Assembly: GCF_004104075.1 (NCBI RefSeq)
Contig: NZ_QOVK01000001.1
Location: 434,001-498,000, forward strand
DNA: 64,000 nucleotides
Direction: 5' to 3'
Origin: Leeuwenhoekiella polynyae
GTDB lineage: Bacteria > Bacteroidota > Bacteroidia > Flavobacteriales > Flavobacteriaceae
Of the stretch, positions 3,426 through 24,327 are shown in pieces; position 1 is the stretch's first letter; each line of letters starts with the position of its first letter. A program made the translations under genes and the position numbers. Below the pieces are notes generated by a model. That model was not told where the DNA came from, ran no database searches, and worked only from the letters and a program-made list of their open reading frames with translations.

Positions 3426-4859
3426 CTATTTATTTCGGTTTAAAATGCTTTTCAATTCGGTCTTTTCTAAAAAGAAAATGAGACTTACAAAAGCCAGAAT
3501 CAACAGCGTGCTCACGATATAATTTACTCTAAATACGTAAAACGAAACTAATGCTCCGGCTGTCGCTACAAAAAGATACAGCCCGATGCGGGAAACGTTA
3601 TACGGAATATGATAATATTTTTGACCGTAAAAGTACGAAATCAACATCATCACGCCATAAGCCGCAACTGTAGCATATGCTGAAGCCATAAAACCAATAA
3701 TTGGTATAAAATACCAGTTTAACCCAATGGTAAGTGCTGCTCCCAATACTGAAAAGTACATTCCGTAATGTGTTCTGTCTGTTAGCTTGTACCACACCGC
3801 CAAATTGTGATAAATACCTAAAAAGAGATTTGCTAAAAGTATATACGGTACAATCTCTAAAGCTTTAAAGTAATCAGGATCGCCAATTAAAATATCTTTA
3901 AAAATATCTATAAAGCACACTATAATCAGCAAACCTCCAGCACCAACGATGACAAAGTATTTTAGAATAGTCGCATAGGTTACAGGAGCATTTTTATTTT
4001 TAGCATGATTGAAGAAAAACGGTTCTGCTCCCAATCTAAACGCCTGAATAAAAATGGTCATAAATACCGCCAGTTTATAGCACCCGGAATAAGCACCCAT
4101 AATGTCTTTGTCTAGCATATCACCCAGCATCAATTTATCTAAGTTCTCATTGACTACAAATGCAAGACCCGCAACAAGAACCGGCCAGCCGTACTGCCAG
4201 AGTTCACCAAAGAGTTTTCGGTCAAAAACCAGTTTGATTTTAAAGAAGTCTGGAGCGATCAATAAAAAAGTTACCGCACTTGCAGCAAGATTTGCGATAA
4301 AAACGTAGGTAAGTAATTCCCTTGAGTCGTACCAGCTGAAATTTAAATTAAAGTGTGGTATTGCCCAAAGCAAAACCACATTGAGCAAAACATATATTGC
4401 CAAATTGACCAATTTAATACCCGCAAACTTTAAGGCTTTGCCTTTTGCTCTCAGATAGGCAAAAGGAGCGACAACCAGCGCATCAAGTATTACAACCCCT
4501 ACTAGATATGCAAAATACGATGAAGGGAGCTCTAAAGCTTCTGTAATAGGTGCTCTCAACAACCAAAGAATTCCAAGAGCGAAAAGTGTAGTTGTGGTAA
4601 GTGCAATTAAAACCGTACTGTAAACACGTTGTTTATCTTCATAGTTTGAAAAGAACCGAAAAAATGCAGTTTCCATCCCATAGGTGAGCAATACGTTAAG
4701 AAAAGCAGCTCCAATATAAAAAGAAGTTATACCTGCATAACCGGTCGTGTCCACTTTATCGGTATGCAAATAAACCAGGAATATATTCATAATACGCGGC
4801 AGTATAGTTGCCAGACCATAGACCGCTGTATCTTTTACAAAACGTTTCAGTACACTCAA
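3426..4859 (-). CDS. Polysaccharide biosynthesis flippase (Wzx/MATE-like)
   Basis: This 477-residue integral membrane protein has about 12-14 hydrophobic helices spread over its length. It begins with the amphipathic MSVLKRFVKDTAVYGLATIL start typical of Wzx-type oligosaccharide flippases of the MOP superfamily. Such proteins move undecaprenyl-linked oligosaccharides or other lipid-linked precursors across the inner membrane. It is upstream of dut and the sugar nucleotidyltransferase, which fits an envelope-glycan role. It is separate from the second flippase gene at 33000-34310, and the two appear to serve different pathways. The lipid-linked substrate is not known. Confidence 0.87.
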   Translation of the reverse strand: MSVLKRFVKDTAVYGLATILPRIMNIFLVYLHTDKVDTTGYAGITSFYIGAAFLNVLLTYGMETAFFRFFSNYEDKQRVYSTVLIALTTTTLFALGILWLLRAPITEALELPSSYFAYLVGVVILDALVVAPFAYLRAKGKALKFAGIKLVNLAIYVLLNVVLLWAIPHFNLNFSWYDSRELLTYVFIANLAASAVTFLLIAPDFFKIKLVFDRKLFGELWQYGWPVLVAGLAFVVNENLDKLMLGDMLDKDIMGAYSGCYKLAVFMTIFIQAFRLGAEPFFFNHAKNKNAPVTYATILKYFVIVGAGGLLIIVCFIDIFKDILIGDPDYFKALEIVPYILLANLFLGIYHNLAVWYKLTDRTHYGMYFSVLGAALTIGLNWYFIPIIGFMASAYATVAAYGVMMLISYFYGQKYYHIPYNVSRIGLYLFVATAGALVSFYVFRVNYIVSTLLILAFVSLIFFLEKTELKSILNRNK

Positions 4860-21149: not shown

Positions 21150-21764
21150 CTACTTTTTATTTTGCCCGCGCAATACAGGGTTGAGCTCGTCGTCGTTATA
21201 CATTTTCATCTGTTTGTAGACTTTCATGTATTTATCGCCATTGCGAATATCTTTAACCAAGGTGTCTATCGCGGTACACAAATCTACACGCTGCTCTAGT
21301 AAAATATCTAGTTTTTGCTGGCAGGACAATCTATGGTCTTCAGAGGCATCTTCACGACTTGCTTCTTCTTCCATATGATAAATCTTTAAAGTAAGAATGG
21401 ATAAGCGATCTAATGCCCAAGCCGGACTTTCGGTATTTATAGTAGCAGATTTGTTAGGCTCAACATCTTTATATTCATCTAAAAAATAGCTGTCAATATA
21501 CTCTACCATATCCGTTCGCTCTTGGTTAGAAGCATCTATCTGACGCTTTAATTTTAAAGCAGCAACAGGATCAATTTGTGGGTCTCTAATGATGTCTTCA
21601 TAATGCCATTGCACGGTATCTATCCATGCCTTACGGTATAATAAATGCTCTAAAAAATCAACATCTGTGTCATACGGATTACTGAATGGCTGATCAACGC
21701 GATCTTTAATGTGGTAATCATCTACGGCTTTCTCAAAGATGCGTTTTGCAGTATGTGTAATCAT
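21150..21764 (-). CDS. DUF4254 family protein
   Basis: This 204-residue predicted cytosolic protein is mainly alpha-helical with no signal peptide. The central region (VEYIDSYFLDEYKDVEP, then LSILTLKIYHMEEEASREDA) and the C-terminal LVKDIRNGDKYMKVYKQMKMYND are the conserved parts of DUF4254. Genes of this family sit beside GT9 enzymes, as here (3-base gap), and may assist heptose transfer in LPS assembly. That role is an inference from neighbourhood. The adenine methylase lies 6 bases upstream on the same strand. Confidence 0.87.
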   Translation of the reverse strand: MITHTAKRIFEKAVDDYHIKDRVDQPFSNPYDTDVDFLEHLLYRKAWIDTVQWHYEDIIRDPQIDPVAALKLKRQIDASNQERTDMVEYIDSYFLDEYKDVEPNKSATINTESPAWALDRLSILTLKIYHMEEEASREDASEDHRLSCQQKLDILLEQRVDLCTAIDTLVKDIRNGDKYMKVYKQMKMYNDDELNPVLRGQNKK

Positions 21765-21770
21765 AATATT

Positions 21771-22766
21771 TTATTTTTCTAATACGTGTAAATATTCGGT
21801 TGTTGCGGTTGCTTTATGGTTTCTGCTTTCAGTCTTATCTGCTTTAAAACGCTGATATTCTTTAGTGACTAAATCATATTTACCATAACGCTGCATAATA
21901 CTTTTTACGGTTTCTGCAGGCATCAACCCCTCGTTGTTATAACTCAAAAAAATCGTTTTAAACTGCGCAGTTTCAATCAACTTTTCAAAGCTTTCTGCAA
22001 CTTTAACTTTACTGCAAAAAGCACTTTTTGAATAGGTACGCAAACCAGTTTTTCCTTTAGGTACAAAGGTATCTTTTTTTGCGATAGTATTGAGCACATG
22101 ATAATTGGCGCCATATTGTCGTGCATTGTAGGGCGGATCTAGATATAAAATATCGCCCTCAATATCAGCTATTAAGGAATTACTATCCTGATTATAAACC
22201 GAATGCTCATCGGCAGTTATTTTAAAATTTGCAGGCTGAATTTTTAATTCTTTTTGAGCCGATTTTTTAAGCTTTTTTAAATAAGCACCATAAACCGAAG
22301 CAGTATTGGCAACCTTATCAGCGCTTTCTAAAAGACTTGCTAAAAGGAAAAAATAAAGATCTTCGTTAATTTTTTTCTTTGTAAACCACTGTTCAATCTG
22401 TGCTCTAATGGCATCTATTTTTTTACCATTATCTGAGGAAAAATACAAGCGGTTAGAGCTGCCGTTCTCGCTGTAATTATTAAAAATAAAGCCTTCTATT
22501 GCGGTAAGTGTGTTCAGTTTTTCAATATAAAAATCAGCTTCGAGAGCCGTGTTGTTCCCAATATAATTTCGGTTTAAAACATAGCTGTAATACTCTAAAT
22601 CGTTGGCGATAACATGTTTCACTAGTGGTTTAAATATTTTGCCCACGCTACCTGTACCTGCAAACAAATCACAAAAAATCTGATCAGAAAGGTCGTCACC
22701 AGAAACCGCTTTTATGTTGCTAAGCAGCCACTCTGAAAGTTTATGTTTTGAGCCTATATAATTCAT
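21771..22766 (-). CDS. D12 class N6-adenine DNA methyltransferase
   Basis: This 331-residue enzyme carries the SAM-binding motif LFAGTGS (34-40), the MNYIGSKHKL start typical of the D12/Dam-like class, and the catalytic DPPY (210-213), so it should methylate adenine N6 in a specific DNA sequence. The final ATGA overlaps by four bases the upstream gene, which has a PD-(D/E)XK-like core; together they look like a type II restriction-modification pair. A solitary Dam-like regulator would be the alternative. The target recognition region is between about 80 and 190 and its specificity is unknown. Confidence 0.9.
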   Translation of the reverse strand: MNYIGSKHKLSEWLLSNIKAVSGDDLSDQIFCDLFAGTGSVGKIFKPLVKHVIANDLEYYSYVLNRNYIGNNTALEADFYIEKLNTLTAIEGFIFNNYSENGSSNRLYFSSDNGKKIDAIRAQIEQWFTKKKINEDLYFFLLASLLESADKVANTASVYGAYLKKLKKSAQKELKIQPANFKITADEHSVYNQDSNSLIADIEGDILYLDPPYNARQYGANYHVLNTIAKKDTFVPKGKTGLRTYSKSAFCSKVKVAESFEKLIETAQFKTIFLSYNNEGLMPAETVKSIMQRYGKYDLVTKEYQRFKADKTESRNHKATATTEYLHVLEK

Positions 22767-23443
22767 CGTATTGCCCAGATTATATCAGAATATGCCGGTT
22801 TTGTCTCATCAATATGTGGCCTCTTCAATTGCTCAGGATTAAACTGAGCCACATAATTTTCAACCACCGTACGTAACCAGGCAATTTCGGCTTTCAGTTT
22901 ATAATGATACCCATCACTACTATACACGATTAAAAACAGTCTATTTTCGGTATGAAATCTTCTACCCATGCTTTGATTTAAATACAACCACTTGATGAGT
23001 TTTTGTTCATGACTCTGAGCATATTTTAGATTCCATCCAAAACCTCTGGGAAACTTTGTGGTTTTTAAATCAAATTTTACGCGCTGAATACTAAAATCTA
23101 CCAGGCGATCTTTTTTATTTTCTGCAGCTATAACGCCCTCAAGCCCGGTGAATATTTGCTCTACAGCTCGAGAGCTCCAGTAATTATACCAGCGGTTGAC
23201 GGTATAATAGAAAAAGTGCTTTTTATTTAAATCAAATTTCTTTACAGTAAATTCTATACGTTCAATAAGGTTTTCAAATTCCTGAGTATGATAAATAAAA
23301 TTGCTGTGATTATCCCAAAGATCATTCTGCTTTCTAAACCAGAGATCCCGGTAAGGCCAGCGCTTTTTAAGCTCGGTCTCTAATGCTACTAAATCTAACT
23401 CTTTCAAAATAATATCGCTATAGGTAAAAGGAGTGCTAACCAC
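22763..23443 (-). CDS. Candidate type II restriction endonuclease (PD-(D/E)XK-like)
   Basis: This 226-residue protein is not one I can name. A core resembling PD-(D/E)XK nucleases is visible: helix residues around E95-E102, D116 on a strand (LVDFSIQRVKF), then D125-L-K127 (FDLKTT) and a further strand RLFLIVYSS. The family-like phrase FDLKTTKFPRGF is typical of such folds. It overlaps the downstream adenine methylase by four bases, as expected for a restriction partner. The ORF also overlaps the end of DUF6427 by 40 bases; a TTG about 12 codons inside would remove this overlap. Nuclease activity is inferred, not shown. Confidence 0.6.
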   Translation of the reverse strand: MVSTPFTYSDIILKELDLVALETELKKRWPYRDLWFRKQNDLWDNHSNFIYHTQEFENLIERIEFTVKKFDLNKKHFFYYTVNRWYNYWSSRAVEQIFTGLEGVIAAENKKDRLVDFSIQRVKFDLKTTKFPRGFGWNLKYAQSHEQKLIKWLYLNQSMGRRFHTENRLFLIVYSSDGYHYKLKAEIAWLRTVVENYVAQFNPEQLKRPHIDETKPAYSDIIWAIR

Positions 23444-24327
23444 AAAATCATTTCTTTAAACCAAAAACTTTTACTAGTCTCTATGTAGCTGGCCGTTATA
23501 ATTGCCAGCGGACCAAAGAAAAAATACAATTCGCTCCCATCGTGTAAAGGAGCTAAAAATATAGCAATGGTTAATGCTACCAGCGAACTTATTAAAATAA
23601 GAATGTATGAAGCTTTTAGATTTTGAGGTGCATCAGAAATCTGAGCTAAATATCGCAGTCCACACCAAACATAGAGTGCTAAAAAGAATGATGCCGGTAT
23701 GAGTAATTTTATAGTGCTGTAATTTGTAAAATCTAACGTTGGCAGTTCTACATAATTGAGTGTAAACTCCAGCACGCCTTCATAGTATAAACTGAAAGTA
23801 AAAGTTAATATAGCTACTACAAAAATTCCCCCTAGAGGCATCAGCCAGTTTCGATATTCTCCTCTGCCATAAAAGAGTATTGCAAAGTATAATACGATTA
23901 AAAATAGAATACTCCAGAAGAAAAAAAGCGATGCAATCGCTATCCAAAAAGCCGCGTCAAATATTTTTTTACTGAAATCAGTAACAGACTTTAAACTGAT
24001 GATTCTACGTAAGGCTAAAAAAACAAATACCCCAGAAAGTATCACTCCGGTATTGAAAAAGCTCACCGGCACAGCAAACGTAAAACACACAAATAAATAC
24101 AAAATATAGGTGTTGCGCTTGGTAAGCGTATTGCGTTTTACCACAAAATTGAGTACTCCTAAAGAAAAAAGATAGACTAAAAGAACCATAAACTGACTCA
24201 ATATCCCATAAGCTGTTAGCTCATAACGATCTGAAACAATGTAAAATCCGGTAAAGTATACGACAACTGCTAAAACAATCATCGCAAAACTTATAGGTTT
24301 TGAAACGCCAAAAAAGCTTGTAAGCAT
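23404..24327 (-). CDS. DUF6427 family membrane protein
   Basis: This 307-residue integral membrane protein has about eight hydrophobic helices from residue 1 to 300 and no soluble domain. It is the DUF6427 family, conserved in flavobacteria next to the divergent DUF6341 gene and purD, as here. Function is unknown. The gene has its promoter region shared with the divergent DUF6341 gene, where a TAnnTTTG box lies on the other strand. Its C-terminus overlaps the candidate nuclease ORF. Confidence 0.8.
   Translation of the reverse strand: MLTSFFGVSKPISFAMIVLAVVVYFTGFYIVSDRYELTAYGILSQFMVLLVYLFSLGVLNFVVKRNTLTKRNTYILYLFVCFTFAVPVSFFNTGVILSGVFVFLALRRIISLKSVTDFSKKIFDAAFWIAIASLFFFWSILFLIVLYFAILFYGRGEYRNWLMPLGGIFVVAILTFTFSLYYEGVLEFTLNYVELPTLDFTNYSTIKLLIPASFFLALYVWCGLRYLAQISDAPQNLKASYILILISSLVALTIAIFLAPLHDGSELYFFFGPLAIITASYIETSKSFWFKEMILWLALLLPIAILF

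What the first reader, a model, noticed from the sequence alone, without database searches (positions are those of the whole stretch)
21771..23443. Candidate type II restriction-modification pair
A D12 adenine methylase (LFAGTGS at 34-40, DPPY at 210-213) overlaps by four bases an unnamed 226-residue protein. That protein has D116, then D125-L-K127 and a following strand, as in PD-(D/E)XK nucleases. The overlap and order fit a restriction enzyme with its methylase. The nuclease-like gene does not match any family I can name, and the pair sits in an otherwise conserved block between DUF6427 and DUF4254, so it may be an acquired module with a new specificity.
Basis: partly seen in the sequence, partly recalled or inferred. 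Interest (0 to 1): 0.7.

Follow-up and report, generated by a model that had tools for sequence, protein, structure and literature searches.

The report
Resident CATG restriction-modification gene pair
Two overlapping genes of a marine bacterium most likely make an enzyme that cuts DNA at CATG and a partner that marks the cell's own CATG sites; the target is a known one, but the cutting enzyme matched no family in the libraries searched, and a relative of it sits on a huge Priestia plasmid in whose sampled parts no CATG was found.

Summary
21771-22766 (-) is a D12 N6-adenine methylase; 22763-23443 (-), overlapping it by ATGA, is a 226-aa protein with E95, D116, D125, K127. Across 34 sequences (its own included) E95, D116 and D125 are conserved 34/34, K127 33/34. 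AlphaFold (pLDDT 86, pTM 0.84) gives the element order of PD-(D/E)XK nucleases; Foldseek finds nothing significant. Both genes occur in the same 15 of 99 genomes; 30 of 34 nucleases have a DNA methylase within 1.2 kb (22 D12, 8 N6_N4 type).

The specificity is probably not new. CATG is the most depleted of 256 tetramers in the window's genome. Observed/expected is 0.24-0.54 in 10 of 10 carriers sampled at 100 kb or more and 0.73-0.90 in 4 of 4 non-carriers. A 65%-identical methylase in a relative follows a Pfam ICEA (NlaIII-type, CATG) enzyme. The window's nuclease is not ICEA-like: an unrelated isoschizomer. The pair occupies the same site in three other genera: resident, not a recent import.

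Surprise: Priestia plasmid pFDU301A (1.08 Mb) encodes homologues of both nucleases; 656 kb of it hold 0 CATG, 1529 expected.

The parts
22763..23443 (-). R: 226-aa PD-(D/E)XK-type restriction endonuclease, GTG start, first gene of the pair; predicted to cut unmethylated CATG
   Evidence: ORF; conservation in 34 sequences; AlphaFold models; no family match over cut-off in Pfam/NCBIfam/PADLOC
21771..22766 (-). M: 331-aa D12-class DNA N6-adenine methyltransferase, predicted to methylate CATG
   Evidence: PF02086 3.1e-54, PDLC03257 443 bits; same-family methylase beside an ICEA enzyme in G043
22763..22766 (-). ATGA overlap of R stop and M start (translational coupling, inferred)
23159..23161 (-). 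R Glu95 codon, in the long helix 74-99
   Evidence: 34 of 34
23096..23098 (-). R Asp116 codon (the D of 'PD')
   Evidence: 34 of 34
23063..23071 (-). R Asp125-Leu126-Lys127 codons ((D/E)XK motif, strand 122-130)
   Evidence: D125 34 of 34, K127 33 of 34
22647..22667 (-). M motif LFAGTGS, residues 34-40 (SAM binding)
   Evidence: F35, A36, G37, T38, G39 invariant in 15 sequences
22128..22139 (-). M catalytic motif DPPY, residues 210-213
   Evidence: invariant in 15 sequences
23404..24327 (-). upstream flank, DUF6427 gene (3' end overlaps R by 40 bases)
   Evidence: PF19992 5.9e-9
21150..21764 (-). downstream flank, DUF4254 gene
   Evidence: PF14063 1.8e-64

Best explanation
A two-gene orthodox Type II restriction-modification system with target CATG. 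M (D12 class) puts N6-methyl on the adenine of CATG on both strands. R, a small PD-(D/E)XK nuclease using E95, D116, D125 and K127 with divalent metal, cuts entering DNA at unmethylated CATG. R comes first in the operon from a GTG start inside the end of the preceding gene, and M is translationally coupled through ATGA. Shown here: anatomy, residue conservation, linkage, site avoidance, an NlaIII-type partner of the same methylase family. Inferred: enzymatic activity, target, metal use, coupling and protection. Not known: cut position within CATG. The system is probably an old resident of this chromosomal site in Flavobacteriaceae.
For: (1) E95/D116/D125 34 of 34 and K127 33 of 34; the exception, G342, has no methylase beside R and no D12 methylase in its genome (it has one partial N6_N4 match). 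(2) AlphaFold order helix 74-99, strands 104-106, 117-119, 122-130, helices, strand 168-174. (3) R and M in the same 15 of 99 relatives, adjacent; 30 of 34 R sequences have a DNA methylase within 1.2 kb, of two unrelated classes: 22 D12, 8 N6_N4-type. (4) CATG obs/exp 0.43 in G000, 0.31-0.51 in 5 other carriers of R with M, 0.24-0.54 in 4 genomes with the other methylase class; 0.73, 0.89, 0.88, 0.90 in 4 non-carriers; lowest of 256 tetramers in G000 and G011. (5) G000 has one D12 and no N6_N4 or C5 methylase match. (6) In G043 a second methylase, 65% identical to M and hitting the same PDLC03257 model, follows an ICEA protein, 1.5e-66; iceA1 is an NlaIII isoschizomer per a passage of PMC2816704. 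(7) pFDU301A carries homologues of both R and ICEA and has 0 CATG in 656 kb, 1529 expected.
Against: No significant structural match: best PDB row E 0.09, EcoO109I E 0.10 with TM about 0.2; best viral model E 0.012. No biochemical or methylome data. The CATG statistic rests on 60-464 kb samples of related organisms, so points are not independent; 2 of 3 non-carrying congeners were sampled, and G008 is itself fourth lowest of 256 tetramers for CATG (0.74). Smaller samples of R carriers overlap the gap: viral L060, which has R with a D12 M, 0.62; viral L059 0.68; G342 with the K127E R 0.66 (12.6-20 kb each). In G730, G589 and G704 GGCC, and in G704 also CTAG, is more depleted than CATG; G730 also carries a longer-class relative. 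Type I and other methylase families of G000 were not searched.
Confidence: 0.85

Rival explanations
1. Restriction-modification pair with a target other than CATG (for example a longer site); CATG avoidance reflects something else.
For: Avoidance is indirect; CATG is mildly low also in non-carriers (0.73-0.90) and only 0.62 in the viral contig L060 that has R with M. The lowest 6-base palindrome in G000, GGATCC, is at 0.52.
Against: Carriers and non-carriers sampled at 60 kb or more separate completely (10 v 4); the methylase family pairs with ICEA; the Priestia replicon without CATG carries both R and ICEA homologues.
Confidence: 0.08
2. M works alone (regulatory or housekeeping methylase) and R is a decaying or silenced relic.
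For: GTG start within another gene suggests low expression; 3 congeners lack the pair; R diverges faster than M (59% v 79% identity in G010).
Against: Catalytic residues are intact in 33 of 34; none of the 15 carriers kept M in this arrangement without R; fast divergence with a constant active site is usual for restriction enzymes (general knowledge).
Confidence: 0.06
3. Not exclusive of the best explanation: R is simply the FatI (/CATG) or CviAII (C/ATG) family, already characterised biochemically; then nothing about it is new except its distribution.
For: FatI cuts /CATG (passage of PMC6449724). That FatI comes from Flavobacterium aquatile, a member of the same family of bacteria, and that CviAII cuts C/ATG are recalled, not from a call.
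Against: None direct: no sequence of either enzyme was reachable; a search for FatI with Flavobacterium aquatile found 0 papers.
Confidence: 0.45

Closest known systems
iceA1-hpyIM / NlaIII restriction-modification systems (Pfam PF05315 ICEA nuclease; partner methylase name hpyIM recalled; CATG)
   Same: Same presumed target; methylase of the same family (G043 has one 65% identical to M directly after an ICEA gene)
   Different: R shows no similarity to ICEA (no PF05315 hit; best local match E 0.30). The ICEA proteins seen carry an HNH-like EVDHK-GR motif (sequences; HNH reading recalled), R the PD-(D/E)XK residues
FatI and CviAII (CATG endonucleases)
   Same: Same presumed target; possibly the same family as R
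PD-(D/E)XK restriction enzymes such as EcoO109I
   Same: Order of secondary structure and E...D-X8-DXK residues; EcoO109I is the best-ranked restriction enzyme in both PDB Foldseek runs
   Different: Not significant (E 0.35 and 0.10); no significant sequence match to any solved chain
366-378-aa relatives of R in other genomes of the class and phylum (L025-L031, L073-L077)
   Same: Same catalytic block E...D...FD-K and C-terminal half
   Different: About 60-70 extra residues inserted after the DXK strand plus an N-terminal extension; a 20-kb sample of G178 shows CATG 52 observed v 61 expected but GATC 0 v 29 and GGCC 0 v 48, so the target is probably different

Membership tests
Orthodox Type II restriction-modification system | Adjacent genes for a DNA methylase and a separate endonuclease | tested here: met
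   (endonuclease identity inferred from residues)
Orthodox Type II restriction-modification system | Avoidance of the recognition site in long-term carriers (about half of 1774 cases, PMC4687349 abstract) | tested here: met
   CATG 0.24-0.54 in 10 of 10 carriers sampled at 100 kb or more, 0.73-0.90 in 4 of 4 non-carriers; 0.62-0.68 in three small samples
Orthodox Type II restriction-modification system | Cleavage of the site and protection by methylation | not testable with these tools
   needs biochemistry or methylome data
PD-(D/E)XK nuclease superfamily | Conserved D and (D/E)XK, with upstream E | tested here: met
   E95, D116, D125 34/34, K127 33/34
PD-(D/E)XK nuclease superfamily | alpha-beta-beta-beta-alpha-beta core | tested here: inconclusive
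   Predicted element order fits; Foldseek not significant; I did not examine coordinates to see whether the residues cluster
D12-class N6-adenine methyltransferases (PF02086) | Profile match over cut-off, FxGxG and DPPY | tested here: met
   184.8 bits v cut-off 22
ICEA / NlaIII endonuclease family (PF05315) | Profile match | tested here: not met
   no hit for R with E limit 1 or 10
FatI / CviAII endonucleases | Sequence homology | not testable with these tools
   no sequence reachable; one search found no paper

The most novel reading that the evidence does not exclude
R is a CATG nuclease unrelated to NlaIII that can work without CATG methylation when its genome has removed the site. The 1.08-Mb Priestia megaterium replicon pFDU301A carries a homologue of R (33% identical, active-site residues kept) and a homologue of the unrelated ICEA/NlaIII nuclease, and is, as far as sampled (656,449 of 1,081,311 bp), devoid of CATG: 0 seen, 1529 expected, the only one of 256 tetramers missing, while 50-kb samples of plasmids B and C of the same strain have normal CATG (168/172 and 165/187). 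It would tell self from non-self by genome-wide site elimination instead of methylation and could destroy competing or host DNA. Caveat: it carries several DNA methylases of unknown target.
Probability: 0.37. Interest if true: 0.82.

Novelty: new member of a known kind. Interest (0 to 1): 0.5.

Why it matters
If R is not FatI or CviAII, it is another independent invention of CATG cutting, and a family without a model in Pfam, NCBIfam or the PADLOC copy searched. Its methylase partners come from two unrelated classes (D12 and N6_N4) while CATG stays depleted, which lets one ask how a restriction enzyme changes protector without killing the cell. The pair looks like a long-resident restriction system at a fixed chromosomal site, so vertical evolution of R against M can be followed. 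The Priestia replicon with no CATG found and two unrelated CATG-nuclease homologues is a direct test case for methylation-free self recognition. In practice, transformation of Leeuwenhoekiella may need CATG-methylated or CATG-free DNA.

Tried and rejected
Sequence routes to the nuclease fold: phmmer and profile search of PDB chains gave nothing relevant (none; five dihydrofolate reductases, E 0.24-0.62). Foldseek v PDB and v viral models (first model only) gave no hit under E 0.01. Phages: no R homologue in 50,697 records at E 0.01. Viral contigs: none from the single protein, three from the alignment.

Rejected: 'new specificity' and 'recent acquisition' (see above). Rejected as evidence of decay: the single TAA in the G043 and G059 rows; the profile matches from residue 16 or 12 on lie in one open frame, so the stop is probably upstream of the start. 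Rows dropped before the 34-row count: L032 and L033 (weak rows at E about 7.5e-4; L033 is an alpha-rhamnosidase by Pfam), L079 and L080 (broken or fragmentary), the 366-378-aa class and its fusion L078, and G772 (L072, 281-aa frame, E 3.9e-23). G772 sits beside an N6_N4 methylase and keeps E95, D116, D125 and K127 but not D44, Y51, F117 or S158, so it looks closer to the longer class. Several loci of one genome were counted once. The Atu_ph07 phage neighbour of an M homologue does not match the R profile. The roughly 730-base insert at the same site in G029 and G048 is a uracil phosphoribosyltransferase gene. A Bacteroidetes-type promoter scan (consensus recalled) found one place, inside DUF6427, not informative. 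In the DUF4254 tree my pattern found only 7 of 21 sequences, so vertical inheritance rests on synteny and on the similar R and M trees, not on a flank tree.

Full report
WHAT IS THERE. On the - strand, in order of transcription: DUF6427 (23404-24327), R (22763-23443, GTG start, 226 aa, overlapping DUF6427 by 40 bases), M (21771-22766, 331 aa, overlapping R by ATGA), DUF4254 (21150-21764) and a glycosyltransferase family 9 gene. GC of M (34.5%) and R (36.1%) is close to that of DUF6427 (34.7%), DUF4254 (38.0%) and the window (36.1%). M is a D12 methylase (PF02086 3.1e-54; PADLOC PDLC03257 443 bits). R has no match over cut-off in Pfam, NCBIfam or PADLOC and none among solved chains. The nearest named genome is Leeuwenhoekiella aestuarii (98% R identity).

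RELATIVES. R was found in 15 of 99 related genomes including its own and in 12 of 395 of the class sample including its own (2 others of the 226-aa class, 7 with a longer 366-377-aa relative, 2 weak). With an 18-row alignment it was found in 20 of 395 of the phylum sample including its own (11 of the 226-aa class). M at E <= 1e-20 was found in the same 15 of 99. Further relatives: 7 loci from genome contigs (three have the contig lengths of G003, G006 and G002 and were counted once), 3 viral contigs, one plasmid record of 72,556, no phage of 50,697. I put one sequence per genome or record of the 226-aa class in one alignment (34 rows). D44, Y51, W85, N87, E95, D116, F117, F124, D125, P132, L149, W152, Y154 and S158 are identical in 34 of 34; K127 in 33 of 34. 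The exception, G342, has Glu at 127, no methylase found beside R, no D12 methylase in its genome and one partial N6_N4 match: a nuclease that seems to have lost its protector and its activity. G160 also has R without a methylase found beside it, but its active site is intact; a D12 methylase and two N6_N4 matches lie elsewhere in its genome.

FOLD. AlphaFold2 with 8 sequences (pLDDT 83.2, pTM 0.82; the five models ranged from 44 to 83) and with 11 (86.2, 0.84; all five over 82) gives a long helix 74-99 holding E95, strands 104-106, 117-119 and 122-130 (D116 just before the second strand, D125 and K127 in the third), helices 139-155 and strand 168-174. That is the PD-(D/E)XK order. Foldseek did not confirm it: EcoO109I is second in the PDB at E 0.35 and 0.10 with TM near 0.2, the first rows being a maltodextrin phosphorylase and a CdiA-CT; the viral library's best is E 0.012. 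The Priestia homologue has a sub-threshold match of residues 95-137 to RE_MjaI (E 0.046). The fold call therefore rests on residues and element order.

LINKAGE. Of the 34 R sequences, 22 have a D12 M-like gene within 65 bases. Eight have an N6_N4-type methylase: seven by a profile built from four such neighbours, those four confirmed as PF01555, and the viral L059 by PF01555 4.5e-38. Gaps for the seven: -30 to 4 bases in four, 174, 433, and 1199 (G589, partial at the locus edge). Four have none found in the DNA held: G160, G342, Priestia, L061. In L078 (G719) a D12 methylase and an R-like domain of the longer class form one 739-aa frame.

SITE AND AGE. Between DUF4254 and DUF6427 the pair is present in 10 of 13 genomes of the genus (in G011 only the first 76 residues of DUF4254 matched) and in G054, G039 and G053 of other genera. 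In G059 only the DUF4254 side is kept close; in G043 the pair is elsewhere. In G007, G008, G012 and in G013 of another genus the two flanking genes are 68-147 bases apart without it. R and M trees (quick method) show the same small groups within the genus but differ in how these join; R evolves faster (59% v 79% identity between G000 and G010). This fits an old resident with losses; repeated insertion at one site is not excluded.

TARGET. Observed over expected (from tri- and dinucleotide counts) for CATG: carriers with M: G000 0.43, G011 0.31, G001 0.32, G002 0.37, G054 0.51, G039 0.42; R homologue with an N6_N4-type methylase: G730 0.38, G678 0.24, G589 0.32, G704 0.54; non-carriers: G008 0.73, G007 0.89, G013 0.88, G014 0.90 (60-464 kb each; G008's small contig C1 gave 0.89). 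Smaller samples (6.5-20 kb): L001 0.29, L002 0.32, L003 0.38, L004 0.50, L005 0.20, L006 0.23, L007 0.45; against the pattern, viral L059 0.68, viral L060 (R with M) 0.62 and G342 0.66; viral L061 0.00. Longer-class genomes G178 and G719 gave 0.85 and 0.62. In G000 and G011 CATG is the lowest of all 256 tetramers (0.44, 0.31); in G008 it is fourth (0.74), in G007 not among the five lowest. In G730, G589 and G704 GGCC is lower than CATG, and in G704 CTAG too. G000 has one D12, no N6_N4 and no C5 methylase match. In G043 a second M-like methylase (65% identical) follows a 209-aa protein that is Pfam ICEA at 1.5e-66. A passage of PMC2816704 (passages seen) says iceA1 is a functional isoschizomer of NlaIII, and its reference list gives a title calling iceA1 CATG-recognizing; that paper was not held. 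Some phage annotators call M homologues 'ulcer associated' methylase, the same lead. PMC4687349 (abstract and section list seen) reports that only orthodox Type II systems cause site avoidance and that it grows with residence time.

HOW IT WORKS (inferred). M methylates CATG adenines; R cuts unmethylated CATG of incoming DNA. R is read first and probably weakly (GTG within a gene), M by coupling; no controller gene lies between. Cut position unknown.

THE PRIESTIA REPLICON. The one plasmid hit, pFDU301A (1,081,311 bp, one feature in its gene table), holds an R homologue at 33% identity with E, D, D, K kept, beside a dCMP deaminase (PF00383 9.1e-25) and a probable nucleotide kinase (AAA_18, below cut-off). 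The ICEA protein of G043, searched against the plasmid collection, hits only this same record (41.5%, E 1e-29). CATG is 0 of 1529 expected in 14 stretches totalling 656,449 bp spread over the record; in the 13 larger stretches no other tetramer is missing, the next rarest having 181. First 50 kb of plasmids B and C of the same strain are normal (168/172, 165/187). Methylases on it: one D12 unlike M (best match to M E 0.035 over 17 residues), a weak N6_N4, a C5 methylase (HaeIII-like, 1.2e-22) about 1.3 kb from the ICEA homologue, and, among 55 ORFs scanned (of 119 of 330 aa or more in nine stretches), two members each of the PHROGs methylase families phrog_116 (best 1.2e-76) and phrog_363. Their targets are unknown, so 'methylase-free' is not proven. 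The 25 PHROGs families shown of 105 include topoisomerase, tail-like and endolysin families and no terminase or capsid; whether it is a plasmid or a giant phage is open. A search for pFDU301A found 0 papers; the four papers found for FDU301 were seen in the listing only.

VERDICT. A real, ordinary-in-kind Type II system with a predicted known target and a nuclease family that the libraries searched do not name. The family-level novelty depends on a comparison with FatI and CviAII that could not be made. The side finding on pFDU301A is the most surprising item. On checking, the confidence was lowered from 0.86 to 0.85 for the three small samples that overlap the gap, and the odds of the novel case from 0.40 to 0.37 for the further methylases on pFDU301A.

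Noticed in passing
Priestia megaterium pFDU301A NZ_CP045273.1; L057:3935-4657 (R homologue), L270 about 4001-4447 (ICEA homologue): 1.08-Mb replicon with 0 CATG in the 656 kb sampled (1529 expected) that carries homologues of two unrelated CATG nucleases; 50-kb samples of sister plasmids B and C have normal CATG.
   Followed up: partly
L055:824-2505 and L021 (G043): One genome holds both presumed CATG systems: R with M on contig C21 and ICEA with a 65%-identical M on C12.
   Followed up: partly
L063, L064, L065, L066, L068, L070, L059: R homologues near N6_N4-type methylases instead of D12: apparent exchange of the protecting methylase, with CATG still depleted in the genomes sampled at 100 kb (G730, G678, G704) though 0.68 in viral L059.
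   Followed up: partly
L078:1024-3240 (G719): 739-aa single frame fusing a D12 methylase and an R-like nuclease domain of the longer class.
   Followed up: no
L025-L031, L073-L077: 366-378-aa relatives of R with an insert after the DXK strand, most of them next to other methylases; a sample suggests another target (GATC 0/29 and GGCC 0/48 in 20 kb of G178).
   Followed up: partly
L024:1426-2148 (G342): R homologue without a methylase beside it, with Lys127 replaced by Glu: a likely dead nuclease.
   Followed up: partly
L061 (viral contig, 12.6 kb held): Viral contig with an R homologue, no D12 M or N6_N4 gene found beside it, and no CATG, GATC, AGCT or CCGG in 12.6 kb (0 seen; 28, 20, 20, 9 expected).
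   Followed up: no
L145:772-1554, L144:2176-2835 (G029, G048): A uracil phosphoribosyltransferase gene occupies the same DUF6427-DUF4254 gap in two other genera.
   Followed up: yes
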